A stretch of 64,000 nt of DNA from contig NZ_CP059556.1 of NCBI RefSeq assembly GCF_024734405.1, forward strand, positions 2,108,001 through 2,172,000, written 5' to 3'. Shown here piece after piece: positions 7,724 through 37,407 of the stretch. This DNA is from Saccharopolyspora gregorii. Lineage in GTDB: Bacteria > Actinomycetota > Actinomycetes > Mycobacteriales > Pseudonocardiaceae. Every line of letters begins with the position of its first letter. Positions within the stretch are counted from its first letter, which is position 1. The notes below the pieces were generated by a model that was given only the letters and a program-made list of their open reading frames with translations, did not search any database and was not told the DNA's origin. The translations under genes and the position numbers were made by a program.

Positions 7724-7866
7724 GGTGGCGGAACCTCAGCGGGATCCTCGCTGCGGGATCGTTGTCACCGGTGGCTCCGCGACAGGCGGCAACGCCGTCC
7801 TCGCGAGCACGGGTGGTCCGGTTGCTCGGGTGGTCGGTGGCTCAGCGGCTTCGCCGCTGGCGGGAA
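7724..7866 (+). repeat. convergent-junction hairpin element, copy 1
   Basis: Begins with GGTGGCGGAACCTCAGC (7724-7740), 31 bases after the dgt stop, and ends with the small hairpin CAGCGGC-TTC-GCCGCTG (7843-7859). The central stem is partly decayed: CGTTG pairs with CAACG and CTCGC with GCGAG, but the outer arms no longer match as they do in copies 2 and 3. It lies between convergent dgt and the MFS gene. Confidence 0.85.
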
Positions 7867-7945
7867 AGCGATACCGGCCGCCGAGCAGGTCCCGGAGTGG
7901 GGTTCCGCCGCCCCGTCCGGCGCAGGGGAGTGGAGCTACCGGTGC

Positions 7946-9241
7946 TCAGCCGGTCGGCGGTGCCTCGGTGAGGGTGCGCCGGTAGGTCTCGGTGAGCAGG
8001 TAGCCGGAACCCAGCGAGATCAGGCACACCGCGATCACGTACCCGGCGATCGCCATCGACGAGCCGGTCCACCCGTACAGCGCGGTGCAGATCATCGGCG
8101 CCAGCCCGCCGCCGAAGATCCCCGCCAGCTGGTAGGCCAGCGACGCGCCGCTGTAGCGGAACCGGGTGCTGAACAGCTCCGCGAAGTACGCCGACTGCGG
8201 CCCGTACACCGCGGTCCGGCACAGCTGCACCACTACGCCGCCCAGCAGGAACAGGCCGATCGAGCCGCTGTCGACGAGCAGGAAGTACGGCACCGCGAAC
8301 ACCGCCAGCCCCGCCATGCCGGCCATCGACATCCCGCGCCGCCCGATGCGGTCGGAGAGCAGCCCGAACGCCAGCATCAGCGGGATGTCGGCGAAGCTCA
8401 GCAGCGCGTTGGCGCCGAGGACGGTGGTGCGCTCGTAGCCCAGCGAACCCGTCGCGTACGCCACGATCCAGGTGGTGCCCACGTAGAAGGTGGCGTTGGT
8501 GGCGAGGAACGAGCCCGCGGCCAGCGCCACGGTCCGCGGGTGCTCGCGCAGCACGTCGAGCACCGGTGTCCGGGTTCGCGGCTGCTCGCGGGCGGCCTGC
8601 TGGAACACGGGGCTCTCGCTGATCCGCAGCCGGATGAGCAGGCCGACGCCGATCAGCACCCCGCCGCACAGGAACGGAACCCGCCAGCCCCAGGTCAGGA
8701 ACGCGGCCTCGTCGAGCCCGGCGGACAGCGCGGCGAACACGAGGTTGCCCAGCAGCAGCCCGGCGGGCACCCCGATCTGCGGCCAGCTGCCGTAGAAGCC
8801 GCGCCGGTGCGGCGGCGCGTGCTCCACCGCCATCAGCGCGGCCCCGCCCCACTCGCCGCCGACGCCGATGCCCTGCGCGAACTGCAGCACCGCCAGCAGC
8901 AGCGGAGCGGCGACGCCGATGGTCCCGTAGGTCGGCAGCACCCCGATCAGCACCGTCGCCACGCCCATCAGCAGCAGCGACGCGACCAGCACCGGTTTCC
9001 GCCCGTGCCGGTCCCCGTGGTGCGCGAACAGCACCCCGCCCAGCGGCCGCGCGACGAACCCGACGGCGAAGGTCGCGAACGAGGCGAGGGTGCCGAGCAG
9101 CGGTTCGAACTCGGGGAAGAACAACCGGTTGAACACCAGCGCGGCGGCGGTGCCGTAGATGAAGAAGTCGAACCATTCGATGGTGGTGCCGATCAGCCCG
9201 GCGAACGCGACCCGCCGCGCGCTGGAAGGGGGAGCGGTCAT
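7946..9241 (-). CDS. MFS transporter, metabolite:H+ symporter (MHS) type
   Basis: 431 residues with about 12 hydrophobic segments. The start of the first helix (GLIGTTIEWFDFFIYG) and the loop GDRHGRKPVLV are typical of the MHS subfamily (ShiA, ProP, KgtP). RGFYGSWPQIGVPAG resembles the conserved central segment. Substrates of such carriers are small organic acids or osmolytes; this one cannot be specified. I chose ATG 9241 because a strong GGGAGGT lies 8 bases upstream; a start at 9283 would add 14 unlikely residues. Confidence 0.9.
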   Translation of the reverse strand: MTAPPSSARRVAFAGLIGTTIEWFDFFIYGTAAALVFNRLFFPEFEPLLGTLASFATFAVGFVARPLGGVLFAHHGDRHGRKPVLVASLLLMGVATVLIGVLPTYGTIGVAAPLLLAVLQFAQGIGVGGEWGGAALMAVEHAPPHRRGFYGSWPQIGVPAGLLLGNLVFAALSAGLDEAAFLTWGWRVPFLCGGVLIGVGLLIRLRISESPVFQQAAREQPRTRTPVLDVLREHPRTVALAAGSFLATNATFYVGTTWIVAYATGSLGYERTTVLGANALLSFADIPLMLAFGLLSDRIGRRGMSMAGMAGLAVFAVPYFLLVDSGSIGLFLLGGVVVQLCRTAVYGPQSAYFAELFSTRFRYSGASLAYQLAGIFGGGLAPMICTALYGWTGSSMAIAGYVIAVCLISLGSGYLLTETYRRTLTEAPPTG

Positions 9242-9401
9242 CCCGGCGCACCTCCCGATCGATGTGATCCAGATCATCCGCACTCGGGTCGGTGCACGTC
9301 AACGGGCTGCCGATCGCCGCAGCGGTGGCTCGGGCGAGCGGAGCCCCCGGCTGCGCCGAACGTCCTCGCGCCGGGAAGCCCGCGCGTGCTGGGATGGGGG
9401 C

Positions 9402-10070
9402 ATGCGCAGCAGGGAACTCGCCGGGGGCGGCCGGGCGGTGGCGGTGCCGCCGGAACGGCTGGCCGGCTGGTTCGAGCGCTTCGCCACCCGCCACGGCGGG
9501 GCGGAGCGCACCGAGCTCGCCCCGCGCGAGGTCGTGGTCACCGCCGCCGACGGCGCCACCGCGCGGGTCGCGGTCGCGTTCGCGGACCTGCCGGGGCCGC
9601 ACGGCGAACGCCCCGGCCTCGCGGTGCGACCGCTGGTGGAGCACGCGCGCACGCCGCGGCGGATCGGGTTGGTGCTGGTGCGCCTCGGCGCGCACAGCGT
9701 CGGCATCGCCCGCGGCGGCACCGTCGAGGTCTCCCACACCGACCGGCACCTGGTGCACGGCCGGAACAAGGCGGGCGGCCAGTCCCAGCAGCGCTTCGCC
9801 CGCCGCCGCGAGGGCCAGGCCCGGCGCTCGCTGGAGTCGGCCGCGGCCGACGTGGCGCGGGTGCTGCTGCCGGAGCGCGACCGGCTGGACGCGCTGGTGC
9901 TCGGCGGTGACCGGCGGGCGCTGGAGGCGCTGCGCGCCGAACCGCGGCTGCGGGAGTTCCTGGCCACCGCGGAACCGCGGGTGCTCGACGTCCCGGAACC
10001 ACGACGTTCCATCCTCGACGACGCCGCCGAACGCGCCACCGCCGTCGAGGTCCACGTCCGCGAACCGTGA
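9402..10070 (+). CDS. acVLRF1-type peptidyl-tRNA hydrolase (Vms1-like release factor)
   Basis: 222 residues. The diagnostic segment is RNKAGGQSQQRFARRREGQA, with the GGQ at 125-127, as in actinobacterial relatives of eukaryotic Vms1/ANKZF1 and eRF1. These proteins release nascent chains from peptidyl-tRNA on stalled large subunits. The N-terminal half (FERFATRHGG, then a beta-rich stretch) also fits. The next gene encodes an ABC-F protein, another class acting on stalled ribosomes. The start ATG is the first one consistent with the family; no clear Shine-Dalgarno is present. Confidence 0.85.
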   Translation: MRSRELAGGGRAVAVPPERLAGWFERFATRHGGAERTELAPREVVVTAADGATARVAVAFADLPGPHGERPGLAVRPLVEHARTPRRIGLVLVRLGAHSVGIARGGTVEVSHTDRHLVHGRNKAGGQSQQRFARRREGQARRSLESAAADVARVLLPERDRLDALVLGGDRRALEALRAEPRLREFLATAEPRVLDVPEPRRSILDDAAERATAVEVHVREP

Positions 10071-10132
10071 CCGGCCGGTCGCGTCCCGTCGCCGGGGTGC
10101 GGAGTGCGCGCCGGAGCCGCGGGACCGGCCGC

Positions 10133-10138
10133 TACACT
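10133..10138 (+). promoter_or_regulatory. -10 box (TACACT) in front of the ABC-F leader
   Basis: TACACT lies 6 bases upstream of a GTG at 10145, in the long leader before the ABC-F gene. No good -35 is visible. Transcription from here would give the ABC-F mRNA a leader of about 180 bases. Confidence 0.55.
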
Positions 10139-10144
10139 GGGCAC

Positions 10145-10225
10145 GTGGTGAGCAAGCGCGCGACGAACAGGTGCGCGGCGGAGCTCCGCCTGCGGGGGCC
10201 GCGCACGACGGTCTCCGCCGATTAG
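10145..10225 (+). CDS. possible 26-codon leader peptide upstream of the ABC-F gene
   Basis: GTG GTG AGC AAG opens a short frame ending at TAG 10225. The product would be VVSKRATNRCAAELRLRGP followed by RTTVSAD, a basic peptide. Its GTG sits 6 bases after a TACACT box, so it could be the first codon of a leaderless mRNA that also carries the ABC-F gene. A nested hairpin lies inside it (10171-10206). Upstream ORFs of this sort control several ABC-F genes by ribosome-mediated attenuation. Whether this one is translated or conserved is not known from sequence alone. Confidence 0.4.
   Translation: MVSKRATNRCAAELRLRGPRTTVSAD
10171..10206 (+). promoter_or_regulatory. nested hairpin inside the ABC-F leader
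   Basis: Outer arms GTGCGCGG (10171-10178) and CCGCGCAC (10199-10206) can enclose the perfect palindrome GGCGGAGCTCCGCC (10177-10190). The two pairings compete for bases 10177-10178, which would allow alternative folds. It overlaps the possible leader ORF. Confidence 0.4.
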
Positions 10226-10321
10226 CCGCGGTGCCCTCGGCCCGTCGAACCCGGTGACCGGACCGGCCTGCGGCGGGCGTCCCCGTGATCTCGCTCGACC
10301 ACTACGTCTTCGGAGCCTTCC

Positions 10322-11950
10322 TTGATCTCTGCCTCGGGCCTAGAACTGCGCGCGGGTTCGCGCATCCTGCTCTCCGGCGCCACGTTGCGCGTCCAGCCGG
10401 GCGACCGGATCGGCCTGGTCGGCCGCAACGGCGCGGGCAAGACGACGACGCTGCGGGTGCTCGCCGGTGAGGGCGAGCCCTACGCCGGGGAGCTCGTCCG
10501 ACGCGGCGAACTCGGCTACCTCCCGCAGGACCCCCGCGAGGGCGACCTGTCGGTGACCGCGAAGGACCGGGTGCTCTCCGCCCGCGGCCTCGACCAGCTG
10601 CTGCGCGACATGGAGAAGGCGCAGACCGAGATGGCCGAGTTCGCCGACGACCGGAAGCGGGACAAGGCGATCAACCGCTACGGCAAGCTGGAGGAGCGCT
10701 TCGGCGCCCGCGGGGGTTACGCGGCCGAGAGCGAGGCCGGGCGGATCTGCTCGAACCTCGGGCTGGCGGACCGCATCCTGTCCCAGCCGCTGCGCACCCT
10801 CTCCGGTGGTCAGCGCAGGCGCGTCGAGCTCGCCCGCATCCTGTTCGCCGCCTCCGAGGCGGGGCCCGGCGGCCGTTCGGCGACGACCCTGCTGCTGGAC
10901 GAGCCGACGAACCACCTCGACGCGGACTCGATCAACTGGCTGCGCGAATTCCTCCGCTCGCACGACGGCGGGCTCGTGGTGATCAGCCACGACGTGGACC
11001 TGCTGGCCGACGTGGTGAACAAGGTGTGGTTCCTCGACGCGGTCCGCGGCGAGGCCGACGTCTACAACATGGATTGGAAGCGCTACCAGGAGGCGCGGGC
11101 CGCCGATGAGAAGCGCCGCCGCCGCGAACGCGCCAACGCCGAGAAGAAGGCCTCCACGCTGATGGCGCAGGCCGACAAGATGCGCGCCAAGGCGACCAAG
11201 GCCGTCGCCGCGCAGAACATGGCCCGCCGCGCGGAGAAGCTCGTCAACGACCTGGAAGAGGAGAAGGTCGACGACAAGGTCGCCAAGATCCGCTTCCCCG
11301 ACCCGGCGCCCTGCGGGCGCGTCCCGCTCACCGCGAGCGGGTTGTCGAAGTCCTACGGCTCGCTGGAGATCTTCAGCGGCGTGGACCTGGCGGTGGACCG
11401 CGGGGCGAAGGTCGTGGTCCTCGGTCTCAACGGCGCGGGCAAGACCACCCTGCTGCGGCTGCTCGGCGGCATGGAGGAACCGGACGCGGGTGCCATGGAA
11501 CCCGGGCACGGCCTGCGCGTCGGCTACTACGCGCAGGAGCACGAGACCCTCGACCACGACGCGAGCGTGTGGGCGAACATCCGCAGCGCCGCCCCGGACA
11601 CCCCGGAACAGCAGCTGCGCACCCTGCTCGGCGCGTTCCTGTTCCGCGGCGAACAGCTGGAGCAGCCCGCGGGCACCCTCTCCGGTGGCGAGAAGACGCG
11701 ATTGGCGTTGGCGGGCCTCGTCTCCAGCGCCGCGAACGTGCTGCTGCTGGACGAGCCGACGAACAACCTGGACCCCGCGAGCCGCGAGCAGGTCCTCGAC
11801 GCGCTGCGCAGTTTCACCGGAGCGGTGGTCCTGGTCACGCACGATCCAGGAGCCGTGGAAGCACTCGAGCCGGAACGGGTGATCCTGTTGCCCGACGGGA
11901 CCGAGGACCACTGGTCGGCTGATTACTTGGAGCTAGTGCAACTCGCCTGA
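10322..11950 (+). CDS. ABC-F family ATPase (ribosome-associated)
   Basis: 542 residues with two ATPase domains and no membrane segment, which defines ABC-F. Walker A motifs are GRNGAGKT (34-41) and GLNGAGKT in the second half. Signatures are LSGGQRRR and LSGGEKTR; Walker B motifs are LLLDEPTNHLD and LLLDEPTNNLD. The charged linker between domains (about 255-315) is the part that enters the ribosomal E site in this family. Relatives rescue or regulate stalled ribosomes, and some confer macrolide or pleuromutilin tolerance. Gene order with the next HTH and enoyl-CoA hydratase genes matches the Rv1473 region. Start is TTG 10322, with GGAG upstream. Confidence 0.9.
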   Translation: MISASGLELRAGSRILLSGATLRVQPGDRIGLVGRNGAGKTTTLRVLAGEGEPYAGELVRRGELGYLPQDPREGDLSVTAKDRVLSARGLDQLLRDMEKAQTEMAEFADDRKRDKAINRYGKLEERFGARGGYAAESEAGRICSNLGLADRILSQPLRTLSGGQRRRVELARILFAASEAGPGGRSATTLLLDEPTNHLDADSINWLREFLRSHDGGLVVISHDVDLLADVVNKVWFLDAVRGEADVYNMDWKRYQEARAADEKRRRRERANAEKKASTLMAQADKMRAKATKAVAAQNMARRAEKLVNDLEEEKVDDKVAKIRFPDPAPCGRVPLTASGLSKSYGSLEIFSGVDLAVDRGAKVVVLGLNGAGKTTLLRLLGGMEEPDAGAMEPGHGLRVGYYAQEHETLDHDASVWANIRSAAPDTPEQQLRTLLGAFLFRGEQLEQPAGTLSGGEKTRLALAGLVSSAANVLLLDEPTNNLDPASREQVLDALRSFTGAVVLVTHDPGAVEALEPERVILLPDGTEDHWSADYLELVQLA

Positions 11951-12279
11951 CGAGTGGTTTTTCCCACCACGATCTTTCCGCAACGCGTCACGGTCCGCCG
12001 CGACGACCGGTCGCCGCTCGCGACGAGCGGCGACCGACCCCGCACAGTCGTCACGCTCTGACCAGCCAAAACGTCGTGGGATGGCGATCCTCACCGCCGG
12101 ATGTCCCGAGTTGGCTAGACCGAACGGTCGAGCGCATTCCGGTGATCGCAGCCTATCGATCTCAACCGTTGGGCGATCTTTTTGCATGATCGCCTGGCGT
12201 TTACGGCCGTCCTGTTCGATCATTGCGACGACAGGGGTCGCGAGCGGCCCGACCTGTTCGGAGGGAAGGCGGGGACACT
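11951..12279 (+). other. 329-base intergenic region before the HTH gene
   Basis: No convincing gene. It is AT-richer than its surroundings around 12110-12220. An inverted repeat GCGATC-9-GATCGC lies at 12173-12193 and could be an operator for the HTH gene or the tail of the ABC-F transcript. No strong rho-independent terminator is evident. Confidence 0.5.
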
Positions 12280-12489
12280 GTGGCTGACCTGAAGAAGGGT
12301 GCGCGAATTACAGGGAGCGCCCGGGACAAGCTTGCCAGTGACCTGAAGAAGAAATACGAGAAGGGTGCGAGCATTCGCGCTCTCGCCGAGGCGACCGGCC
12401 GTTCCTACGGGTTCGTGCACCGAGTCCTCAGCGAGTCCGGGGTGCAGCTGCGCGGACGTGGGGGTGCGACGCGGACCAAGAAGAAGTGA
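12280..12489 (+). CDS. small helix-turn-helix protein (Rv1473A-like)
   Basis: 69 residues, very basic, with the helix-turn-helix IRALAEATGRSYGFVHRVL in the middle and a lysine-rich tail (TRTKKK). This small protein is highly conserved in actinobacteria next to the ABC-F gene. In Mycobacterium tuberculosis the equivalent is Rv1473A. It presumably binds DNA; its targets are unknown to me. Start GTG 12280 is preceded by a purine-rich stretch (GGAGGGAAGG, 10-19 bases upstream). Confidence 0.85.
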   Translation: MADLKKGARITGSARDKLASDLKKKYEKGASIRALAEATGRSYGFVHRVLSESGVQLRGRGGATRTKKK

Positions 12490-12603
12490 CCCGGCGGGCA
12501 TGATCGGTTCCATGCGGTCCGTTTTCGACCGGCGGGTAACGTCTTGCGCGGTTCCTGTCCGGTCAACGCAGAACTGATGGAGGCCCGCTTGGAGCAGTCG
12601 AGG

Positions 12604-13389
12604 ATGGACGCCGACCTTCTGGACCGTGGCGGTGTGGGGCTCACGGTCCAGGGGCGGCGCGCCACCATCACACTTGATCGCCCGGACAAGTTGAACGCGC
12701 AGACGCCGGCCACCTGGGCGGCGCTGCGCGACATCGGACAGTCCCTCGACCCGGAGGTCCGGGTCGTGGTGGTGCGAGGGCGGGGGCGCGCGTTCTCCGC
12801 AGGGCTGGACCGGCGGCTGTTCGGGGCCGACGAGGTGGACGGCGAACCCGGCCTGGTCTCGCTGGGGCAGCGCCCCACCGAAGAGGCCGACGCCGCGATC
12901 GCCACGTTCCAGCAGGGGTTCAGCTGGCTGCGGGAACCCGACCGGGTGACCATCGCGGCCGTGCACGGGCACGCCATCGGCGCGGGCTTCCAGCTCGCCC
13001 TGGCCTGCGACCTGCGAGTGCTGACCGAAGACGCTTCGCTGCGGATGGCCGAGACCGGGCTGGGGCTGGTCCCGGACCTCGGCGGCACCTTGCCGCTGGT
13101 GCGCGCGGTGGGTTACGCGCGTGCCGTGGAGATCTGCGTGAGCGGGCGGGACGTCCCGGCCGCGGAGGCGCTGCGGATCGGCCTGGCCAACTCGGTCGTC
13201 GCGGCCGACGAGCTCGACGCGGAGGTGGACCGGCTGGTGGAGGCGCTGAGCGCACCGCCGGAAGGGGCGGTCCGCGAAACGCTGGCGTTGCTGGCCCAGG
13301 CCGACGAGGCCGTGGACCCGGAGCAGCAGCTGGCGGCGGAGCGGGCGGCGCAGATCCGCCGGATCTCCGGCATGCTCGGCTCCGGCTGA
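12604..13389 (+). CDS. enoyl-CoA hydratase/isomerase family protein
   Basis: Crotonase-fold protein of about 261 residues. Oxyanion-hole segments are GRAFSAGLD and HAIGAGFQLALACD. Of the two catalytic glutamates of classical hydratases, the one in the second helix is replaced (GAGFQL instead of GGGCEL), while the other is kept in RMAETGLGL. It may therefore not hydrate enoyl-CoA; isomerase, hydrolase or other crotonase chemistry is possible. Start is uncertain: ATG 12604 has GGAG 9 bases upstream, while TTG 12589 and ATG 12577 are alternatives. Position matches echA12 (Rv1472) next to the ABC-F gene. Confidence 0.82.
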   Translation: MDADLLDRGGVGLTVQGRRATITLDRPDKLNAQTPATWAALRDIGQSLDPEVRVVVVRGRGRAFSAGLDRRLFGADEVDGEPGLVSLGQRPTEEADAAIATFQQGFSWLREPDRVTIAAVHGHAIGAGFQLALACDLRVLTEDASLRMAETGLGLVPDLGGTLPLVRAVGYARAVEICVSGRDVPAAEALRIGLANSVVAADELDAEVDRLVEALSAPPEGAVRETLALLAQADEAVDPEQQLAAERAAQIRRISGMLGSG

Positions 13390-13472
13390 GCGGTAGCGCG
13401 TTCTCGACCCCGGGGGCCTTCGGGCTCGGGGCGCGAGCGCCGAGATCTCCAGATCGGGAGCTCTTCCGAATC

Positions 13473-13505
13473 GGGGCCGGTTCCGCATCGCGCGGGACCG
13501 GCCCC
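13473..13505 (+). terminator. bidirectional hairpin terminator
   Basis: Arms GGGGCCGGTTCCG (13473-13485) and CGGGACCGGCCCC (13493-13505) pair over 13 bases with one G-T pair and a 7-base loop. It separates the convergent enoyl-CoA hydratase and SIS genes. Confidence 0.7.
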
Positions 13506-13523
13506 GGTTCGTGTTCCTGCGGG

Positions 13524-14327
13524 TCAGACGAGTCCGGGGACCCGGGCTCCGTAGTGCTGCAGGTTCGCCTTGTTCGCCTCGTCGCCGCCGACGGTGTTGG
13601 CGCTGCGCCACACCGGCAGCGGCACCTCCGCCCGCTGCGCGGCGTCGTGCAGCTCCACCAGCAGCATGTTCCACAGGTAGGCGTTGGACAGCGAGGACAG
13701 CGGCGCGGTCACCGGTTCCGCCACCGGGTAGCTGGCGTCACCGCCCGGCACCAGCGTGTCCAGCACGATCCCCGCTTGGGCGGCGAGCGTGGTGCCCGCG
13801 CGCAGCGGGGCGTCGGCGGAGGCCAGCGGCGAGGTGATCGCGACGACCACCGAGCCGGCTTCGGCCGCGGCGATCGCCAGCTCCACCGGGTACGGGTTCA
13901 CCCCGGAGTTGGAGAACACGACCAAGGCGTCCCGCCCGCCGCGGAACCCCGCTTCGGCGAGGACTTCGCGGGCGAGCCCGCTGGTGCGTTCGGTGTTCGT
14001 GGAGGCCACCGCGCCGTGCAGCGGAAGCAGGTCGGGGTGGTACAGCGGACGCACCGCGGCCAGCCCGCCCGCGCGGTAGAACGACTCCATCACCCCGGCG
14101 AGGGAGTGGCCGGCGCCCGCGGTGAACACGAGGCCGTCCGCGCGCACGCAGTCGAGCAGCGCTTCGGCCGCCCCGCGCAGCGCCGCCGCGTTGTGCTCGC
14201 CGATGGCGCGCAGGTGCGCGAGGGTCGGTTCGGCGTGGTGCGGGCCGGTCACGGCTCGTGTCGGTTCCGGTGGGGGCGTGGCGGTCGAGGTGGCCTCGGG
14301 GCGGCCGGTGCCGGGATTGTCGGGCAT
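13524..14327 (-). CDS. SIS-domain sugar isomerase-type protein
   Basis: 267 residues. After a disordered N-terminus of about 30 residues comes a SIS fold: DGLVFTAGAGHSL and ALVVFSNSGVNPYPVELA carry the small-residue loops that bind phosphosugars. It resembles the sugar isomerase-domain proteins once grouped as UPF0309. Substrate unknown. Start ATG has AGGAG 7 bases upstream and a good promoter (TTGCCA-16-TATAGA) further up. A TetR-family gene diverges from it and is a plausible regulator. Confidence 0.82.
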   Translation of the reverse strand: MPDNPGTGRPEATSTATPPPEPTRAVTGPHHAEPTLAHLRAIGEHNAAALRGAAEALLDCVRADGLVFTAGAGHSLAGVMESFYRAGGLAAVRPLYHPDLLPLHGAVASTNTERTSGLAREVLAEAGFRGGRDALVVFSNSGVNPYPVELAIAAAEAGSVVVAITSPLASADAPLRAGTTLAAQAGIVLDTLVPGGDASYPVAEPVTAPLSSLSNAYLWNMLLVELHDAAQRAEVPLPVWRSANTVGGDEANKANLQHYGARVPGLV

Positions 14328-14365
14328 GCGCGGACTCCTGGGTGCGAACTGCGGAACCCTGCCGG

Positions 14366-14393
14366 TCTATACCAATGGCGCGGGTGCTGGCAA
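14366..14393 (-). promoter_or_regulatory. sigma70-type promoter of the SIS gene
   Basis: On the minus strand TTGCCA (14393-14388) and TATAGA (14371-14366) are separated by 16 bases, and the ATG follows 38 bases downstream of the -10 box. This is the best two-box promoter I found in the window. Confidence 0.65.
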
Positions 14394-14452
14394 CCGAGGA
14401 GCGGCCCGCGGGCGGCGCCGTGTTGATCGCGGTGCGGTGATCACTCCCGCGC

Positions 14453-14458
14453 TACAAT
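14453..14458 (+). promoter_or_regulatory. -10 box (TACAAT) of the TetR gene
   Basis: TACAAT lies 89 bases before the TetR start, in an AT-rich patch. A -35 at proper spacing is not recognisable. GGTGATCACTC just upstream contains the palindrome TGATCA. Confidence 0.5.
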
Positions 14459-14547
14459 GATTACTCTGCGGTGTCGGTCGCGGGACGGGCGCCGCTGCAC
14501 GCACGAGCCGACGCAAGATCAACGAGCGCAAGATCAACAGGGGATGC

Positions 14548-15171
14548 ATGCCGCAGCGTAGGAATCGTCGGGTCCAGCTCGCCGACGCCGCGATCGAGGT
14601 GCTGGCGAGGGACGGGGGTCGCGGCCTGACCCATCGGGCCGTGGACCGCGAGGCGGGCTTCCCCGAGGGCACCACCAAGAACTACCACCCGAACCGGGAT
14701 TCCCTGTACGTGGCGATCGCCCGGCGGATGGCCGATCAGCAGACCGCGGCGATGCGGCGGCTGCGGGAGAACATGCCGGAGGGCGTGTCCGCGGACGACG
14801 TGCGGGCGCTGTACCTGGCGATGCTGCGGCGGATGGCGGGCGCGGCGCGCTCGCAGTTCCTGGCGCTGTTCGAGCTCCAGCTGGAAGGCGTGCGGAACCC
14901 GCAGGTGCGCTCGGCGCTCGGCGAGATGACCCTGGCGGGGGTCGATTCGGCGGTCACCCTGCACGCCGCGGTCGGCGAACCGATCTCCGCGCGCGGCGGC
15001 GGGCTGCTGGAGGCCGGGATGATGGGCGTGGCGATGTCCGTGCTGAGCCTGCCGGACGACGTGGTGGGGCGGATCGGGTTCGGCGATCCCGACGAGCTGG
15101 GGCGCTCGCTGCTGGGGATGGCGGTGGACGCGGAGCCGGCGGACGGCCTGCTGCGCGGGCAGGCGAGCTGA
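14548..15171 (+). CDS. TetR-family transcriptional regulator
   Basis: 207 residues. The N-terminal HTH spans about 8-52 (LADAAIEVLARDGGRGLTHR, then AVDREAGFPEG); the usual recognition-helix motif LYxHF is replaced by TKNYHPNRDSLY, an unusual but recognised variant. The remainder is the ligand-binding helical domain. Divergent from the SIS gene, with 220 bases between, so autoregulation and control of that gene are likely. AGGGG precedes the ATG. Confidence 0.82.
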   Translation: MPQRRNRRVQLADAAIEVLARDGGRGLTHRAVDREAGFPEGTTKNYHPNRDSLYVAIARRMADQQTAAMRRLRENMPEGVSADDVRALYLAMLRRMAGAARSQFLALFELQLEGVRNPQVRSALGEMTLAGVDSAVTLHAAVGEPISARGGGLLEAGMMGVAMSVLSLPDDVVGRIGFGDPDELGRSLLGMAVDAEPADGLLRGQAS

Positions 15172-15468
15172 CCGCTCCCGCCGCGAACCGGTCCCGCCGG
15201 AACCCGTCCCGCTCGCCGGGTGGCGAGTTCCGAGGTGCTGCGCGGGCCGTTCCTCCCCCTCGCGGGACGAGCGGTCCGCTTCGTCGTTCCGGTCCGGTGA
15301 GCTGGGGTTCCGCCCCAGGTGGCCGCGCTGCGCAGTGGCAAGATCACGACAGGTAGTCTTCGTTCTCCCGGTACCGCTGTCCGCGGGCGCCGAGCGGGTT
15401 GGCATCATTGCTCGCGGCGTGTCCATGCGAGACCAGCAGAATCGACTCCCGTGGGGTGCAACGAAGGC

Positions 15469-16182
15469 ATGTCGAATCCGCCTCTGCAAGACGGCCCGGT
15501 CGAACCCTTGGCGGTCGTGTTCGCCCGCCTCTCCGACGTTCCGCTGGACCAGGTGGACAAGCTGATCGAGGCCACCGGCGCCGTCTACGGCGAGCTCAAC
15601 AAGATCCACGGCCACCCGTACTGGGGCGAGCTGGTGCTGCACCAGGGCGCCGCGATCAAGGCCCTGCGGGAGGCGCGGGAGTGCCTGGACGCGCTGCGCT
15701 CGGAGGCGGTGGGTGCGCGCAACACCGAGCTGGGCGTCACCGTCGCCACCGCCGTCGTGGACGGCGAACGCCACTACGCCACGACCAGCGACGACAAGGC
15801 GTCCCTGGTGGAGAAGGTGCTGCGGCCGCCGACGGCGGGCCGGGCCGCGCACCTGTACGTGTGGGACCGGCCGTACGAGAGCGACGAGATCGCCGGGCCG
15901 TACCAGCAGCTGCGGATCGTGACCGACGCGGACGCCGAGGTCGGGGTGCTCAACTACACCGAGGAGTCCGAGGAGGGCGACCTCACCTCGTGGCACACCT
16001 GCAACCCGGCGCCGCTGGCGGACGCGCCGAAGCTCCGGTTCGACGCGGGCAGCGCGCTGCTGTTCCCGAAGGACTCGGTGCTGCCGTTCCGCGACCTGCG
16101 CGCGGGGCTGCTCGGCTACGTCGTCGACGGCTCCCGGCCGGACGCGGTGCAGTGGCAGCAGGCCCGCTGGGGCGACACCTGA
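15469..16182 (+). CDS. Imm1-like protein of unknown function
   Basis: 237 residues, no signal peptide or membrane segment. The N-terminal 90 residues look helical (ARLSDVPLDQVDKLIEATGA). The C-terminal part has a beta-rich pattern ending in FRDLRAGLLGYVVDGSRPD and VQWQQA, with an upstream LNYTEE segment, which resembles immunity proteins of the Imm1 family. No toxin gene lies beside it. The assignment rests on pattern only. ATG 15469 has GAAGG directly upstream. Confidence 0.5.
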   Translation: MSNPPLQDGPVEPLAVVFARLSDVPLDQVDKLIEATGAVYGELNKIHGHPYWGELVLHQGAAIKALREARECLDALRSEAVGARNTELGVTVATAVVDGERHYATTSDDKASLVEKVLRPPTAGRAAHLYVWDRPYESDEIAGPYQQLRIVTDADAEVGVLNYTEESEEGDLTSWHTCNPAPLADAPKLRFDAGSALLFPKDSVLPFRDLRAGLLGYVVDGSRPDAVQWQQARWGDT

Positions 16183-16332
16183 TCGTGCGGGTGGGCGCGG
16201 GCCGATCCGGTACCGCGTAACGGTTGGGTACACACTCCGTGACCTGGCCTGCGGCACGGCTCGTGGAGCATTGACTAACCGCACCCGGGGATGGTTCTTT
16301 CTCCTCACTTCTGGAGAAGGGTGGGGTGCATC

Positions 16333-18114
16333 GTGGGGCGGAGACTGCTCGTCGCGCTGCTCGTCCTGGGTGGCCTGCTCGTGCCGAACGCGGCCATCGC
16401 GGCGCCCGCCGAGCAGGGCGAGGCCCGGCTGCGGGTCGCGGTGCCGCAGCAGATCGACTCGCTCAACCCGTTCCTCGGGTACTCGCTGGCCGCCACCGAC
16501 CTGTTCCGGCTGATCTACCCCACGCTGACGACCTACAGCCCCGAGGACTTCTCGGCCACCCCCGAGCTCGCGGAGAGCTGGGAGACCTCCCTGGACCGGC
16601 TGACCTGGACCTTCCGCATCCGGGACGGCGTGCGGTGGACCGACGGGCAGCCGGTCACCGCCCGCGACGCCGCCTACACCTACGACCGGATGATGCGGGA
16701 TCCGGCGGCGGCCACCGCGAACGGCAACTTCGTGGAGAACTTCGCCTCGGTCGCCGCGCCCGACGAGCGGACCCTGGTGATCCGCACCAAGACGCCGCAG
16801 GCCACGATGCTGGCCATCGACGCGCCGATCGTGCCCGAGCACGTGTGGTCCGGGATCCCCGACGTCGCCGGGTTCGCCAACGACCGGATGCCGGTGGTCG
16901 GGTCCGGCCCGTTCGTGCTCACCGAGTACGAACCGGAGCAGTACGCGACGCTGCGCGCGAACCGGCGGTTCTGGCGCGGGCCCCCGAAGATCTCCGAGCT
17001 GCAGTTCGTGCAGTTCAAGAACACCGACGCCTCGGTGCAAGCGCTGCGCAAGGGCGACGTGGACGTCGCCCAGCGGCTCACCCCCGCCCAGTTCGACGCG
17101 CTCGCCGGGGAACGCGACATCGCGCAGGTGCGCGGTCAGGGCCGCCGGTTCTTCGAGATGCTGATCAACCCGGGCGCGGCGGACAGCGCGGGCGACCCCA
17201 TCGGCAGCGGGCACCCGGCGCTGCGCGACGTCCGGGTGCGCCGGGCCATCGACCACGCCGTGGACAAGGAAGCACTGGTCGAGCGGGTGCTCAACGGCTA
17301 CGGGCAGGTCGGCGGCGGCTACCTCCCGCCGATCTTCGACGACTACCACTGGAACCCGCCGCGGCCCCGCGAGTTCGACCTGGCCGAGGCGAACCGGCAG
17401 CTCGACGCGGCCGGCTACCGGCGCGGCCCCGACGGCGTCCGCCGCACCCCGCAGGGGCAGCCGCTGGACCTGCGGTTCATGCTGCACGCCAGCGCCTCCG
17501 CCGACGCGCAGGTCGGGGAGTTCGTGAAGCGCTGGCTCGCCGACGTCGGCATCCGCGTGCGGCTCGAACCCGTCTCGGACAACCAGGTCAACGACCGCAC
17601 CACCGCCGGGGACTTCGACCTGGCCGTCTCCGGCTGGTCGGCGAACCCGGACCCGGACTACGTGCTGCGGCTGCAGACCTGCGCCTCCCGGCCCACCCCG
17701 GAAGGCGGCGGCACGCCCGACTCGTTCCTGTGCGACCCGGCCTACGACGACAGCTACGCGAAGCAGCTCGGGGAGTTCGACCCGGCGAAGCGGATCGAGC
17801 TAGTGCAGCAGGCCCAGGCGCGGTTCTACGAGCAGGCGTCCGCATCGGTGCTGTACTACCAGAACTCGCTGGAGGCCTACCGCTCCGACCGGTTCAGCGG
17901 GTTCACCGCGCAACCCGCCGACGGCGGCGTGATCACCGGGCAGCAGGGCTACTGGGGCTACTACGGGGCGCGGCCCACCGCGGCCGCCACGACCTCGCGG
18001 GCCGCCGACGACCGCACCACCCTGCTGGTGCTGGCCGGCGTGGTGCTCGTCGCGGGCGCGGTGGGCCTGCTGGTGGCGCGGCACCGGCGGGCCACCGTCG
18101 ACGAACGGGAGTGA
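16333..18114 (+). CDS. peptide ABC transporter substrate-binding protein, membrane-anchored by its C-terminus
   Basis: Family 5 (oligopeptide/nickel type) binding protein of about 593 residues. The start GTG 16333 gives a signal peptide MGRRLLVALLVLGGLLVPN ending AIA-APA, with no lipobox cysteine. The mature domain includes the family segment VRRAIDHAVDKEALVERVL. A hydrophobic stretch near the C-terminus (TLLVLAGVVLVAGAVGLLVA) followed by basic residues looks like a membrane anchor, replacing the usual lipid anchor. An alternative ATG 16291 would lengthen the leader. It opens a four-gene importer operon. Confidence 0.88.
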   Translation: MGRRLLVALLVLGGLLVPNAAIAAPAEQGEARLRVAVPQQIDSLNPFLGYSLAATDLFRLIYPTLTTYSPEDFSATPELAESWETSLDRLTWTFRIRDGVRWTDGQPVTARDAAYTYDRMMRDPAAATANGNFVENFASVAAPDERTLVIRTKTPQATMLAIDAPIVPEHVWSGIPDVAGFANDRMPVVGSGPFVLTEYEPEQYATLRANRRFWRGPPKISELQFVQFKNTDASVQALRKGDVDVAQRLTPAQFDALAGERDIAQVRGQGRRFFEMLINPGAADSAGDPIGSGHPALRDVRVRRAIDHAVDKEALVERVLNGYGQVGGGYLPPIFDDYHWNPPRPREFDLAEANRQLDAAGYRRGPDGVRRTPQGQPLDLRFMLHASASADAQVGEFVKRWLADVGIRVRLEPVSDNQVNDRTTAGDFDLAVSGWSANPDPDYVLRLQTCASRPTPEGGGTPDSFLCDPAYDDSYAKQLGEFDPAKRIELVQQAQARFYEQASASVLYYQNSLEAYRSDRFSGFTAQPADGGVITGQQGYWGYYGARPTAAATTSRAADDRTTLLVLAGVVLVAGAVGLLVARHRRATVDERE

Positions 18115-18117
18115 GGC

Positions 18118-20075: not shown

Positions 20076-21664
20076 GCCCGATCCTGACGCTGCGCGGCAC
20101 GTCGATCTCCTACCGGGGCGCCGACGGCCTGGTGCCCGCGGTGCACGACGTGGACCTGAGCCTGGAACCCGGCGACACCCTCGGACTGGCCGGGGAATCC
20201 GGGTGCGGCAAGACGACGCTCGCGATGTCGGTGCTGCGGCTGCTGCCGCGCTCGGCGGTGCTCGACGGGGAGGTGCTGCTGGACGGGGAGGACGTGCGCG
20301 GCCTGTCCTTCGGCCGGATGCGCGCCGCCCGCTGGTCCACCGCCTCCGTGGTGTTCCAGGGCGCGATGCACGCGCTGAACCCGGTGCGCACCGTCGGCGC
20401 GCAGATCGCCGAACCGATGCGGCTGCACGGCACCGCCACCGGCGACCTGCGCGGGCGGGTGGCGGAGCTGCTGGAATCGGTGGAACTGCCCGCCGACCGC
20501 GCCGACGCCTACCCGCACGAGCTCTCCGGCGGGCAGAAGCAGCGCGTGATGATCGCGATGGCGCTCGCCTGCGACCCCCGCCTGATCATCGCCGACGAGC
20601 CGACGACCGCGCTGGACGTGGTGGTGCAGGCGCAGGTGCTGGCGCTGCTGGGCAGGCTCGTCGCCGAACGCGGCATCGCGCTGCTCATGATCAGCCACGA
20701 CCTGTCGGTGCTGGCGGCGAGCTGCGCGCGGATCGCGGTCATGCACGACGGCCGCATCGTCGAGCACGGGCCGTCGAAGCAGGTGATGGGCGCGCCGCGG
20801 CACGAGCACAGCCGGGCGCTGGCCGACGCGTTCCCCACCGTCGGCGACCCGAAGTTCCGGCTCGTCGAAGCGGCCCGCCCCGCCGGCCCGGCGCTGCTGG
20901 CCGCCGAAGGCGTGGCGGTGGAGTTCCCGGCGCGCACCGGGGCGGCGGTGCGGGCGGTGCGCGGCGTCGACCTGGAGGTCGGCGCGGACGAGATCATCGC
21001 GCTCGTCGGGCAGTCCGGATCGGGGAAGACGACGCTGGCCCGCACCCTGCTCGGCCTCCAGCGGCCCACCACCGGGCGAGTGCTGTTCGACGGGGAACCG
21101 CTGCCCACCGGCAGCGCCGGGCTGCGCGCGTACCGGCGCCGCGTGCAGCTGGTCCTGCAGGACCCGACGGGGGCGTTGAACCCGCGCCACACCGTCTACG
21201 AAGCGGTCGCCGAAGGCCTGCGCATCCACGGCGACGTCGCCGACGAGGCCGCGAAGGTCGCCGACGCGCTGGAGGCCGCCGAGCTGCGGCCCGCGTCGAA
21301 GTTCCTGTCCCGCTTCCCGCACGAGCTCTCCGGCGGGCAGCGGCAGCGGGTGGTGATCGCCGGGGCGCTGGTGCTGGCACCGCAGGTGCTGGTCGCGGAC
21401 GAGCCGGTCGCCTCGCTGGACGCGACGGTCCGCGGGGAGATCTTGGCGCTGCTGCTGCGGTTGCGCGTCGAACGCGGACTGTCCACTTTGGTCATCACGC
21501 ACGATCTGGGGCTGGCGTGGAACATCGCCGACCGGGTCGCGGTGATGTACCGGGGCGAGATCGTGGAGCTCGGCACCGTCGAGCAGGTGCTGCTCGACCC
21601 GCGGCACGACTACACCAAGACCCTGCTGGCAGCAGTCCCCACCCTGGACCGCCGACCTGCTTGA
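20072..21664 (+). CDS. fused OppD-OppF peptide ABC transporter ATPase
   Basis: 530 residues with two ATPase domains in one chain, doing the work of separate DppD and DppF. Walker A motifs: GESGCGKTT (about 43-51) and GQSGSGKTT in the second half. Signatures ELSGGQKQR and ELSGGQRQR, Walker B LIIADEPTTALD and VLVADEPVASLD. The start overlaps the permease stop by ATGA. It closes the importer operon and is followed, 31 bases after the stop, by copy 2 of the repeated hairpin. Confidence 0.93.
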   Translation: MSPILTLRGTSISYRGADGLVPAVHDVDLSLEPGDTLGLAGESGCGKTTLAMSVLRLLPRSAVLDGEVLLDGEDVRGLSFGRMRAARWSTASVVFQGAMHALNPVRTVGAQIAEPMRLHGTATGDLRGRVAELLESVELPADRADAYPHELSGGQKQRVMIAMALACDPRLIIADEPTTALDVVVQAQVLALLGRLVAERGIALLMISHDLSVLAASCARIAVMHDGRIVEHGPSKQVMGAPRHEHSRALADAFPTVGDPKFRLVEAARPAGPALLAAEGVAVEFPARTGAAVRAVRGVDLEVGADEIIALVGQSGSGKTTLARTLLGLQRPTTGRVLFDGEPLPTGSAGLRAYRRRVQLVLQDPTGALNPRHTVYEAVAEGLRIHGDVADEAAKVADALEAAELRPASKFLSRFPHELSGGQRQRVVIAGALVLAPQVLVADEPVASLDATVRGEILALLLRLRVERGLSTLVITHDLGLAWNIADRVAVMYRGEIVELGTVEQVLLDPRHDYTKTLLAAVPTLDRRPA

Positions 21665-21694
21665 TCGTTCGTTCCCCTTCTTCCGAGGGGGTGG

Positions 21695-21852
21695 GGTGGC
21701 GGAACCTCAGCCGCCTCGTCGCTGCGGGATCTTTTTCCCGAGTGGCTCCGCCACGAGGGAAAAAGCTGTCCTCGCGACGAGGCGGCTGAGAACCCGCGGG
21801 TGGTGCTGTTGAGTGCTGGGTCGCTGCTCAGCGGCTTCGCCGCTGACAGGAA
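21695..21852 (+). repeat. convergent-junction hairpin element, copy 2
   Basis: Starts with GGTGGCGGAACCTCAGC at 21695. The outer stem is perfect over 17 base pairs: CTCAGCCGCCTCGTCGC (21706-21722) with GCGACGAGGCGGCTGAG (21774-21790). Inside it CTTTTTCCC pairs with GGGAAAAAG around GTGGC-TCC-GCCAC. A second small hairpin CAGCGGC-TTC-GCCGCTG lies at 21829-21845. It sits between the convergent transporter ATPase and kinase-like genes. Confidence 0.92.
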
Positions 21853-23487: not shown

Positions 23488-23735
23488 GGCATGACTCCGT
23501 CCGGAGGTCCGGATCGTGGGGTGGCCAGAGCCTAGCGGGCCGCGAGTGATCGGGACCGCAGCCCGCGGCGGTGTGTTCGCGTTCGGCGAACAGCCCGGCC
23601 GGGTGGCGGGGAGCCCGGCGCACGCGGGTCGCAGGTGAACGCGCGGTGCCGACGGTGCTGCTGAGGGGCCGTCTCCGGCCGAACAGGGGACGGCTTCGCG
23701 AGCCGCGGGCCGGGTGGCTTACTGTCGAAGGTGCC

Positions 23736-24302: not shown

Positions 24303-24308
24303 CCGACC

Positions 24309-25103
24309 GTGCACCCCGATGATCCGGCCGTTCGCGAGGTCCTGGCACACGGCCGCATCGAGGTCGAGGGCCGGCTCGTGGAAGCCTCGAACGCCACGCT
24401 GTTCTGCTCCGTCGAGCACGAGGGCGTGACCGCCGAGTGCGTGTACAAGCCGGTGCGCGGGGAACGGCCGCTGTGGGACTTCCCGGACGGCACGCTCGCC
24501 GGGCGCGAGGTCGGATCGTTCCTGGTGGCGGAGGCGCTGGGCTGGCACCTGATCCCGCCGACGCTGCTGCGGGAGGGGCCGTTCGGCCCGGGCATGGTGC
24601 AGCTGTGGGTGGACACCGAGGAGGGCTCCGACCTGGTGGACCTGGTGCCGCCCTCGGAGGTGCCGGAGGGCTGGCGCGCCGTGCTGCGCGCCCAGGACCA
24701 CCGCGGTGACCCGGTGCTGCTGGCGCACTCGCCGCACGAGGAGCTGCGCAGGCTCGCCGTGCTCGACATCGTGATCAACAACGCCGACCGCAAGGGCGGG
24801 CACGTGCTGCACTCGCCGCGCGGCGAGGTGTTCGGCGTGGACCACGGGGTGAGCCTGAACGCGGAGAGCAAGCTGCGCACGGTGCTGTGGGGCTGGATCG
24901 GGGAGCGCTTGCCCGCGGACGCGGTGGAGGCGCTGAGCCGGTTCCGCGCGCTGCTGGAGGGCGATCTCGCGTCCCGGCTGGCCGAGCACGTCACCCCGAA
25001 GGAGGTGCAGGCGCTCGTCGACCGCGTCGACGCCCTGCTCACCACCGGCGAGTTCCCGGCCCCGTCCGGCGACTGGCCCGCCATCCCCTGGCCCGCGTTC
25101 TGA
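24309..25103 (+). CDS. SCO1664 family protein, PI3/PI4-kinase-like fold
   Basis: 264 residues. Family landmarks: the nucleotide-binding lysine in CVYKPVRGERPLWDFP, the catalytic-loop motif VLDIVINNADRKGGHV and the metal-binding FGVDHGVSL. These match the atypical kinase superfamily containing phosphoinositide kinases and HipA. Its substrate is unknown. GTG 24309 follows the DUF3090 stop closely, so the pair is probably co-expressed and may form a complex. Copy 3 of the repeated hairpin follows. Confidence 0.85.
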   Translation: MHPDDPAVREVLAHGRIEVEGRLVEASNATLFCSVEHEGVTAECVYKPVRGERPLWDFPDGTLAGREVGSFLVAEALGWHLIPPTLLREGPFGPGMVQLWVDTEEGSDLVDLVPPSEVPEGWRAVLRAQDHRGDPVLLAHSPHEELRRLAVLDIVINNADRKGGHVLHSPRGEVFGVDHGVSLNAESKLRTVLWGWIGERLPADAVEALSRFRALLEGDLASRLAEHVTPKEVQALVDRVDALLTTGEFPAPSGDWPAIPWPAF

Positions 25104-25135
25104 CCGGGATATCGGCTCGTTCTGCGCTGGGGTGA

Positions 25136-25291
25136 GGTGGCGGAACCTCAGCCGCTTCCTCGCTGCGGGATCGTTTTCACCGGTGGCTCCGCCACAGGAG
25201 AAAACGCTGTCCTCGCGAGGAAGCGGCTGAGAACCCGCGGGTGGTCCGGTTGTGTGCGTGGTCGCCGCTCATCGGCTTCGCCGCTGACAGG
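25136..25291 (+). repeat. convergent-junction hairpin element, copy 3
   Basis: Starts with GGTGGCGGAACCTCAGC at 25136, 33 bases after the SCO1664-type stop. The outer stem is perfect over 17 pairs: CTCAGCCGCTTCCTCGC (25147-25163) with GCGAGGAAGCGGCTGAG (25215-25231). The inner stem CGTTTTC/GAAAACG surrounds GTGGC-TCC-GCCAC. The final small hairpin (25270-25286) has one mismatch. Differences from copy 2 in one arm are matched in the other. Confidence 0.92.
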
Positions 25292-25330
25292 AGAACCGCG
25301 AAGAAGCTCTGGAACGAGCCGAACCTCTAC

Positions 25331-36303: not shown

Positions 36304-36414
36304 CAGCGGAACGCCCCGGGCGAATCATCCTGTTTGTCCTCTTTGCACTGTTCCGCGCCGCCGCTCCGATGGAGGAATTCGCCTCGGCGCGACCTCGATC
36401 GTCGATCACTCGGT

Positions 36415-36420
36415 CATAAT
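36415..36420 (+). promoter_or_regulatory. -10 box (CATAAT) before the two-module VOC gene
   Basis: CATAAT lies 39 bases upstream of ATG 36460 in an AT-rich patch. No clear -35. Confidence 0.4.
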
Positions 36421-36459
36421 GGGTAGTGATCTTGAAGCGATGAGGTGGGGGTGAGGAAC

Positions 36460-37308
36460 ATGGCCGTAGTGCAGCCCGGGGAGGCAGCGCCCCAGTGGGA
36501 GATCGTGGCCGGGATGCCGTGCTGGATCGAACTGGTCACCACCGACGTGGAGCAGGCCCGCGAGTTCTACGCCGAACTGTTCGGCTGGCGGTACGAGACG
36601 CACCAGGACGACGAGGCCGGGGAGCACGTCGTCGCCTACCGCGACGGGTTCCCCGTCGCCAGCATCCGCCGCTCCGCCGGGGAGCACTCCGAATGGCGGC
36701 TGTTCCTCGCGGCGCAGGACGTCGACACCACCGCCGAGCAAGCGCTCGGCGAAGGCGCCCGGATCGTCGTGCCGCCCGCCGACGTGCCCGGCATCGGCCG
36801 CAAGACCGTGCTCGTGGGGCCCTCCGACGCCGAATTCGGGCTGCTGTCCCCCGACGACTCCTGGCAGTTCGACGTCGGCCTGCCCGGCACCCTCATGTGG
36901 GCCGAACTCGTCACCATCAAGGCCGCCGCCGCCGACGGCTTCTTCCAGCGGCTCTTCGGCTACGAAGCCGAGCAGTTCGGCGCCGAGAACCGCTCCAACT
37001 ACGCCGTCTGGTACCTCGCCGGGGAATCGGTGCTCGCCCGGGTCAGCATGATCCGCGACTACATCACCCCCGACACCCGGCCGCACTGGCTGCTCTACCT
37101 CGGAGCCGACGCCGACGAGGGCATCGACGGGCTCGTGCACCGGGCCATCGGGCTCGGCGGGCGGGTCCGCGTCGACCCCTACGGCTCCAGCATCGGCCGC
37201 GTCGCCGTGCTGCGGGACCCCACCGGGGCGCGGTTCGCGGTCGTGGACGACAGCCAGGCCACCGACTGGTTCGACAGCGCGGCCAACTTCGATCCTTACG
37301 ATGATTGA
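36460..37308 (+). CDS. two-module VOC family protein
   Basis: 282 residues containing two VOC modules: CWIELVTTDVEQAREFYAEL and LMWAELVTIKAAAADGFFQR start each half. It resembles Streptomyces and mycobacterial glyoxalase-like proteins sometimes annotated as hydroxylases; no activity can be named. ATG 36460 is preferred; in-frame GTGs at 36445 and 36451 are alternatives. Copy 4 of the repeated element follows 27 bases after the stop. Confidence 0.84.
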   Translation: MAVVQPGEAAPQWEIVAGMPCWIELVTTDVEQAREFYAELFGWRYETHQDDEAGEHVVAYRDGFPVASIRRSAGEHSEWRLFLAAQDVDTTAEQALGEGARIVVPPADVPGIGRKTVLVGPSDAEFGLLSPDDSWQFDVGLPGTLMWAELVTIKAAAADGFFQRLFGYEAEQFGAENRSNYAVWYLAGESVLARVSMIRDYITPDTRPHWLLYLGADADEGIDGLVHRAIGLGGRVRVDPYGSSIGRVAVLRDPTGARFAVVDDSQATDWFDSAANFDPYDD

Positions 37309-37334
37309 CGGGTCTTCGGCCTGCGTCGGGGGCG

Positions 37335-37407
37335 GGTGGCGGAACCTCAGCGGGTGGTCCTGTTGCTCGGGTGGTCGTTGGCTCAGCGGCTTCGCCGCTG
37401 ACAGGGA
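37335..37407 (+). repeat. convergent-junction hairpin element, copy 4 (short form)
   Basis: Has the same left end GGTGGCGGAACCTCAGC (37335-37351) and right-end hairpin CAGCGGC-TTC-GCCGCTG (37384-37400), but the whole central stem is missing. It lies between the convergent VOC and thioesterase genes. Confidence 0.85.

What the first reader, a model, noticed from the sequence alone, without database searches (positions are those of the whole stretch)
7724..37407. A four-copy structured repeat found only between convergent genes, with covarying stems
Copies lie at 7724-7866, 21695-21852, 25136-25291 and 37335-37407. All run in the same orientation, start 27-33 bases after the upstream stop and end 25-80 bases before the opposing stop. 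Copies 2 and 3 have perfect 17-bp outer stems that differ at two positions, each compensated in the other arm. Inner stems also covary (CTTTTTCCC/GGGAAAAAG, CGTTTTC/GAAAACG, CGTTG/CAACG). Such covariation implies selection on folding. It could be a bidirectional terminator, a 3' UTR mRNA-stability element, a REP-type element moved by a TnpA-REP transposase elsewhere, or a small RNA. I know no named family that matches.
Basis: partly seen in the sequence, partly recalled or inferred. Interest (0 to 1): 0.82.

Follow-up and report, generated by a model that had tools for sequence, protein, structure and literature searches.

The report
Mobile hairpin element behind stop codons
A soil bacterium carries well over a hundred copies of a folded hairpin sequence, most of them sitting just behind the stop codon of a gene; their paired stems change in step, related bacteria carry them too, and they look like an oversized relative of known bacterial palindromic repeats.

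Summary
The four copies are real and belong to a large family. The window's genome (Saccharopolyspora-like, 6.34 Mb) has 146 covariance-model matches. Matches occur in 53 of 200 genomes and 13 of 46 genera of the same bacterial family; in a class-wide sample 2 of 394 genomes match, the window's own and one more of that family. Covariation is very strong. 'Only between convergent genes' fails genome-wide: of 116 strong copies examined 66 are convergent, 45 tandem, 4 divergent, 1 scored in a gene. The rule is position: 96 of 115 follow a same-strand gene, usually starting about 8 nt after its stop, where terminator hairpins also start. Copies point with replication 105:41, are mostly at other sites in relatives and carry the GT[AG]G foot of REP elements, but the genome has no Y1/REP transposase. 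No Rfam family reaches its threshold. Best reading: an oversized REP-like non-autonomous mobile hairpin that takes the terminator's seat and probably forms transcript 3' ends. Expression, termination, transposition and the mobilising enzyme are not shown.

The parts
7702..7874 (+). Copy 1, damaged: leader, head GGTGGCGGAACCTCAGC (7724-7740) and inner hairpin present; 3' outer arm missing; second hairpin 7842-7860
   Evidence: profile hit 135 bits; covariance model 91 bits
21676..21859 (+). Copy 2, full: leader to 21694; outer 17-bp stem 21706-21722 / 21774-21790; inner stem CTTTTTC / GAAAAAG; second hairpin 21828-21846
   Evidence: (inverted repeat I2); covariance model 187.8 bits
25114..25302 (+). 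Copy 3, full: leader to 25135; outer stem 25147-25163 / 25215-25231; inner stem CGTTTTC / GAAAACG; second hairpin 25269-25287
   Evidence: (I3); covariance model 190.5 bits
37315..37416 (+). Copy 4, deletion derivative: leader and head (37335-37351) joined to spacer and second hairpin (37383-37401); large hairpin missing
   Evidence: covariance model 59.1 bits
7691..7693 (+). Stop codon of the gene before copy 1 (6119-7693, HD domain); opposing gene 7946-9283 (-, MFS transporter)
21662..21664 (+). Stop codon of the ABC-transporter gene before copy 2; opposing gene 21888-22517 (-, no Pfam match)
25101..25103 (+). Stop codon of the gene before copy 3 (24309-25103); opposing beta-lactamase-family gene ending at 25331 (-)
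37306..37308 (+). Stop codon of the glyoxalase-like gene before copy 4; opposing acyl-CoA thioesterase gene ending at 37433 (-)

Best explanation
It is a family of about 160-195-nt non-autonomous, REP-like hairpin elements. Shown by sequence: one conserved fold (leader, GT[AG]G foot, outer stem, fixed motifs TGCGGGAT and CTGTCCTC, inner stem, second small hairpin); 146 matches here; a usual seat about 8 nt behind a stop codon, where terminator hairpins also begin; orientation biased with replication; and sites and stem allele spectra that mostly differ between related genomes. Inferred: copies spread through single-stranded DNA at the replication fork (lagging-strand template) by an enzyme that I did not identify; once seated, the folded 3' UTR serves as the transcript's 3' end (terminator and/or block to 3' decay), for both genes at convergent junctions; and stem arms stay matched because pairing is selected and because paired arms are exchanged or corrected together in DNA (exchange between copies, or quasipalindrome template switching).
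For: Fold: named pairs formed in 97.5% of cells of 108 own copies, 36-50% when slid; 273 cells with both sides changed in relatives, 80.8 in shuffles, 0/500. Seat: stop to element start median 8 nt, 80 of 96 within -5 to 20; stop to strong hairpin in element-free junctions median 13 nt, n=345. A sense stop 23-60 nt before the head in 23 of 30 G451 loci, and within 100 nt in 21 of 27 copies of other relatives. Element-free convergent junctions hold a strong hairpin in 67% of 176 (shuffled 23%), 3' flanks of elements at convergent junctions in 25% of 60, 5' flanks up to 60 nt in 0 of 82. Spread: 105:41 with replication, p=1e-7; 47:19 within convergent pairs, p=8e-4. 15 of 17 junctions orthologous to element-bearing junctions of relatives have no element here. 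Stem allele spectra differ from those of G451 and are not clustered by distance. GT[AG]G in 36 of 39 distinct copies of relatives.
Against: No run of four T after either hairpin on either strand (0 of 100, 90, 103 and 61); two of seven terminator-like matches of a consensus scan lie in copy 2, but the number found is near chance (7 against 4.1, sd 2.2). The hairpin comparison is not length-matched: the 5' flanks are about 29 nt and the 3' flanks about 48 nt, too short for many hairpins. At several sites a terminator-like hairpin survives beyond the element (L302, L115, the 44.5-kb site in G274 and G385; read by eye), so it may be inserted before a terminator rather than be one. No Y1 transposase or RVT_1 reverse transcriptase here. 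No clear target-site duplication at the sites read by eye. Some sites are shared with relatives: 2 of 17, 3 of 10. Some stem alleles are shared with G451 (TGCTTC, GGCTTC, CTTTTTCCC). Outer-stem cells outside Watson-Crick are A.C more often than G.U (41:10 here, 33:2 in relatives), which a sense-RNA fold alone does not predict.
Confidence: 0.45

Rival explanations
1. A host 3' UTR regulatory or stabilising RNA, inherited vertically and lost at many sites, not a mobile element.
For: Sense position after stop codons here and in relatives; sense fold more stable than antisense in 89 of 99 copies; occurrence in 13 genera; shared sites such as own 694294 and L071.
Against: Orientation follows replication also within convergent pairs, 47:19; where the element opposes both tandem genes it is 11:4, not significant (p=0.12). 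Most orthologous junctions examined are not shared, and allele spectra differ between two genomes of the genus.
Confidence: 0.25
2. A true REP family moved by a TnpA-REP (RAYT) transposase that this genome has lost or that works from elsewhere.
For: GT[AG]G at the stem foot; place and copy number; passages of PMC3733652 and PMC6006769 put REPs behind genes and tie ssDNA transposition to the lagging strand.
Against: PF01797 absent here and in G274, which has 36 exact heads. One element in 23 Y1 loci fetched from the 48 rows, 20 of them from genomes with element matches. Length 160-195 nt against 20-65 in those papers.
Confidence: 0.17
3. A chromosome element that works as duplex or cruciform DNA (binding of gyrase or another protein at 3' ends, as recalled for E. 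coli BIMEs).
For: Few G.U pairs; most changes are Watson-Crick on both sides; enrichment at convergent junctions; orientation with replication.
Against: 45 of 116 strong copies are at tandem junctions; the tight spacing to a sense stop codon is not needed for such a role.
Confidence: 0.13
4. An independently transcribed small RNA.
For: Conserved structure and conserved unpaired motifs.
Against: Usually begins about 8 nt after a stop codon; the only sigma-70-type match in 7600-25400 lies outside the copies, though that consensus suits actinobacteria poorly; 146 dispersed matches.
Confidence: 0.05

Closest known systems
REP elements / REPINs (GT[AG]G-tagged) with TnpA-REP (RAYT)
   Same: GT[AG]G at the 5' foot of a stem, unpaired AA near the foot, many intergenic copies behind genes (passages of PMC3733652, PMC8266576 and PMC6006769).
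   Different: 160-195 nt with two hairpins in the same direction, hypervariable compensated stems, a fixed seat after stop codons, no transposase partner found. The words Saccharopolyspora, Streptomyces and Actinobacteria do not occur in the main text of PMC3733652.
Bacterial MITEs / ERIC-type palindromes (recalled)
   Same: Non-autonomous palindromic elements of 100-200 bp in 3' regions.
   Different: No target-site duplication seen by eye at the sites read; terminal inverted repeats were not formally tested.
Intrinsic (bidirectional) terminator hairpins
   Same: Same seat behind the stop codon.
   Different: No T run, conserved sequence motifs, dispersed as a family.
Stem-loop sequence families of PMC2267715 (passages read)
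   Same: Repeated families of stem-loop sequences in bacterial genomes.
   Different: Its table passage lists Mycobacterium and Corynebacterium; Streptomyces does not occur in the text; Saccharopolyspora was not among the words that I looked for there.

Membership tests
REP element | GT[AG]G tetranucleotide at the foot of the hairpin | tested here: met
   36 of 39 distinct copies of relatives (GTGG 27, GTAG 9); GTGG in the 110 exact heads here by construction of the pattern
REP element | Length 20-65 nt | tested here: not met
   Covariance model 162 positions; profile of 201 positions
REP element | TnpA-REP/Y1 transposase in the genome, or its gene flanked by copies | tested here: not met
   PF01797 0 in own genome, controls positive in 5 of 14; 1 element in 23 fetched Y1 loci of relatives
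REP element | Many intergenic copies, mostly downstream of genes | tested here: met
   96 of 115 placed strong copies have a same-strand gene upstream
REP element | Strand-specific cleavage as single-stranded DNA | not testable with these tools
   Orientation bias 105:41 is only consistent with it
Intrinsic terminator | GC-rich hairpin shortly after the stop codon | tested here: met
   Median 8 nt from stop to element start
Intrinsic terminator | U-tract after the hairpin | tested here: not met
   No run of four T after either hairpin on either strand
MITE | Terminal inverted repeats and target-site duplication | tested here: inconclusive
   No duplication seen by eye at the sites printed, which are diverged; terminal repeats not formally tested
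Any Rfam 15 family | Score above the gathering threshold | tested here: not met
   0 in the window; 7 loci of relatives at E<=1 gave 4 matches, all far below gathering; one of them (ilvB-OMG, 22 of 95.9 bits, L314) overlaps an element

The most novel reading that the evidence does not exclude
A self-renewing population of hairpins: fold, leader and internal-loop motifs are fixed, while outer and inner stem sequences turn over as matched pairs, almost independently of each other and with a different spectrum in each genome, through DNA-level exchange or template switching on mobile copies. Each genome would then hold over a hundred hairpins whose arms match themselves better than each other, and the covariation would record a DNA repair or mobility process as well as selection on RNA.
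Probability: 0.3. Interest if true: 0.78.

Novelty: new variant of a known kind. Interest (0 to 1): 0.62.

Why it matters
If right, it extends REP-like mobile palindromes to an actinobacterial family, with an element several times longer than the REPs of the papers read, no transposase partner found, and a seat that tracks stop codons. It offers hundreds of natural copies with which to separate RNA selection from DNA-level palindrome correction as causes of covariation, which is usually read as proof of RNA function. It would also name a common 3' UTR feature that Rfam does not hold.

Tried and rejected
Y1/REP transposase as present partner: absent here; 22 of 120 family genomes have it, and no formal test of a tie to copy number was made. 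Reverse transcriptase RVT_1: none here. Plasmid or phage carriage: no match in either collection. Rfam: nothing above threshold. The second hairpin as a family of its own: with up to 2 changes, 1 place outside elements in 2.14 Mb. Local duplication: stem alleles of neighbours within 20 kb are not more alike (outer 883/2000, inner 171/2000 shuffles as low). Sense-RNA selection as the only cause of covariation: doubted because A.C exceeds G.U in every junction class. Loci without a profile hit (45 of 120): printed; those of Saccharopolyspora and Prauserella mostly carry the head in diverged, truncated or enlarged copies, and of 37 searched with the model 12 match, all Saccharopolyspora; those of other phyla and of Streptomyces look like chance 17-mers. 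Literature: none of the listed titles or abstract openings, nor the passages read in six papers, describes this element; only open-licence PMC papers are held.
Full report
WHAT IS THERE. The window lies at 2,108,001-2,172,000 of a single contig of 6,344,421 bases. The four copies are real. The exact 17-base head occurs 110 times in the genome (60 forward, 50 reverse) and its reversed control 0 times. A covariance model built from 25 copies finds 146 matches at E<=0.001 among 150 candidates scored, so the true number may be higher; the lower-scoring ones are partial copies.

ANATOMY. From 5' to 3': a leader of about 22-25 nt, weakly conserved here and better conserved in relatives; the head GGT[AG]GCGGAACC; a 17-bp outer stem; conserved motifs TGCGGGAT and CTGTCCTC; an inner stem with an apical hairpin; GAGAACCCGC, which closes a 4-bp basal stem; a spacer; and a second hairpin. 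Window copies 2 and 3 are complete; copy 1 lacks the 3' outer arm and copy 4 the large hairpin.

COVARIATION. In the 108 copies over 130 bits the named pairs are formed in 97.5% of cells, against 36-50% when the partner is slid by 1-3 columns; 52 of the 108 have no mismatch or wobble at all. One inner pair has 64 G-C, 41 T-A, 3 gapped and no broken cell. In the 25-copy alignment 66 cells have both sides changed against 20.4 in shuffles (0/500); the number of further pair types, 16 against 14.8, is not remarkable (133/500). For relatives, 34 sources gave 41 matches at E<=1e-12, 39 distinct: 273 such cells against 80.8 and 30 of 46 pairs against 21.0, both 0/500. That alignment was fitted to the model and leans towards it. 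The outer arms share 3.67 bits against 2.37 in shuffles (0/500), the inner arms 2.01 against 0.57 (0/500), while outer and inner stems share 1.18 against 1.08 (38/500), at most a weak link. Copies are related, so cells are not independent events.

POSITION. I pulled 2.14 Mb (34%) of the genome, largely around exact heads, plus about 0.8 Mb contiguous, the window and a few other stretches, and called genes with a home-made codon scorer. Of 132 element hits 116 exceed 60 bits: 66 convergent, 45 tandem, 4 divergent, 1 scored in a gene; the 1838 junctions there are 345, 1172 and 321. In the contiguous 0.8 Mb, 7 of 16 strong copies are convergent. Of 115 placed copies 96 have a same-strand gene upstream. 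From its stop to the element start the median is 8 nt, 80 of 96 within -5 to 20; in element-free junctions the strong hairpin starts a median 13 nt after the stop (n=345). In 8 copies with long 5' gaps a strong hairpin lies in the gap in 75% (shuffled 25%). Element-free convergent junctions hold a strong hairpin in 67% of 176 (shuffled 23%), 3' flanks of elements there in 25% of 60 (shuffled 2%), 5' flanks up to 60 nt in 0 of 82 (shuffled 0); the flanks are shorter than the junctions, so this is suggestive only. The spacing holds elsewhere: a sense stop was found for 24 of 30 G451 loci, 23 of them 23-60 nt before the head and one at 224, and within 100 nt for 21 of 27 copies of other relatives; both sets were high-scoring matches.

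ORIENTATION. GC skew and coding strand are noisy but tend to change sign near 3.2 Mb and at the contig ends, so I take the origin near 0; dnaA was not located. Of 146 matches 105 point with replication and 41 against, p=1e-7. By class: convergent 47:19 (p=8e-4), tandem with the element along both genes 25:5, tandem with the element against both genes 11:4 (p=0.12). G451 shows 104:46, with the cut chosen to fit best.

MOBILITY. Of 120 loci, 75 had a profile hit; 17 of the element hits fell at junctions orthologous to held DNA here, and 15 of these have no element here (two of the 15 have overlapping flank hits and are unsure). For NFXS83, 265 bp with an element face 9 bp here, and 244 face 20. 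In G451 (150 matches, the scoring cap), 10 of the 30 best loci were syntenic with held DNA; 3 of the 10 have an element here, one truncated. At the three shared full sites that I read (L071, L290, L294), own and relative differ in their stems while the outer arms match in each; L071 has one inner mismatch. Separate insertions at one place cannot be excluded there. Outer alleles of G451 are GTTCTT 9, GGTTTC 7 and TGCTTC 5 of 29; here GGTTCC 16, GGGATT 10 and TGCTTC 6 of 96. The inner start CTTTTTCCC is 23 of 29 there and 16 of 96 here. Alleles are not clustered by distance. Against pure recent spread: a partial copy sits at the site of copy 2 in G274.

DISTRIBUTION. 53 of 200 genomes of the family and 13 of 46 genera (E<=0.001); class-wide 2 of 394, the own genome and G027 of the same family (E<=1e-6, strict filters). 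Named carriers include Saccharopolyspora species, Halopolyspora algeriensis, Amycolatopsis bartoniae and Prauserella flavalba.

MECHANISM. Seen in sequence: fold, seat, orientation bias, different sites and stem spectra. Inferred: transposition through single-stranded DNA on the lagging template, as described for IS200/IS605 and discussed for TnpA-REP (passages of PMC6006769), by an unknown enzyme; and a role as transcript 3' end. Against termination: no T run. A DNA process can also make palindromes perfect: quasipalindrome template switching (abstract and passages of PMC7202029). That, or exchange between copies, would explain why both-sided Watson-Crick changes far outnumber G.U steps. The excess of A.C over G.U in the outer stem (41:10 here; 33:2 in relatives) against the inner helix of relatives (G.U 16, A.C 6) is unexplained.

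COMPARISON. The closest are GT[AG]G-tagged REPs (passages of PMC6006769, PMC8266576 and PMC3733652), which also lie behind genes and between convergent and unidirectional genes. Size and the missing transposase keep this element out of that family by the tests made here.

CONFIDENCE. A real dispersed structured family: about 0.97. A REP-like mobile element: about 0.6. A terminator or 3'-end role: about 0.45.

Noticed in passing
own genome 4180262(+)/4180440(-) and 3491834(+)/3491970(-); L278 15603(+)/15771(-): Pairs of elements in opposite orientation within about 200 nt, like inverted REP doublets.
   Followed up: no
L298 (G451), a little 3' of the element: A run of more than 20 G in intergenic DNA next to an element; real or an assembly artefact.
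   Followed up: no
own genome 554054, 397210, 983480, 2145335: Internal deletion derivatives that join the head to the spacer or the second hairpin.
   Followed up: partly
L068, L092, L125, L131, L146 (Saccharopolyspora rosea): Enlarged variants with the same head and leader and extra sequence in the 5' half of the hairpin, missed by the profile.
   Followed up: partly
G385 and G314 at the site of copy 1: A small hairpin unit resembling head plus second hairpin, in reverse orientation, beside a terminator-like hairpin.
   Followed up: no
window 46953-47163 and 53977-54187: A 211-nt direct repeat at 75% identity, perhaps paralogous domains.
   Followed up: no
outer stem, own and relatives: 5' arms are pyrimidine-rich (C 241, T 208, G 179, A 17) and mismatches are mostly C.A rather than T.G.
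   Followed up: partly
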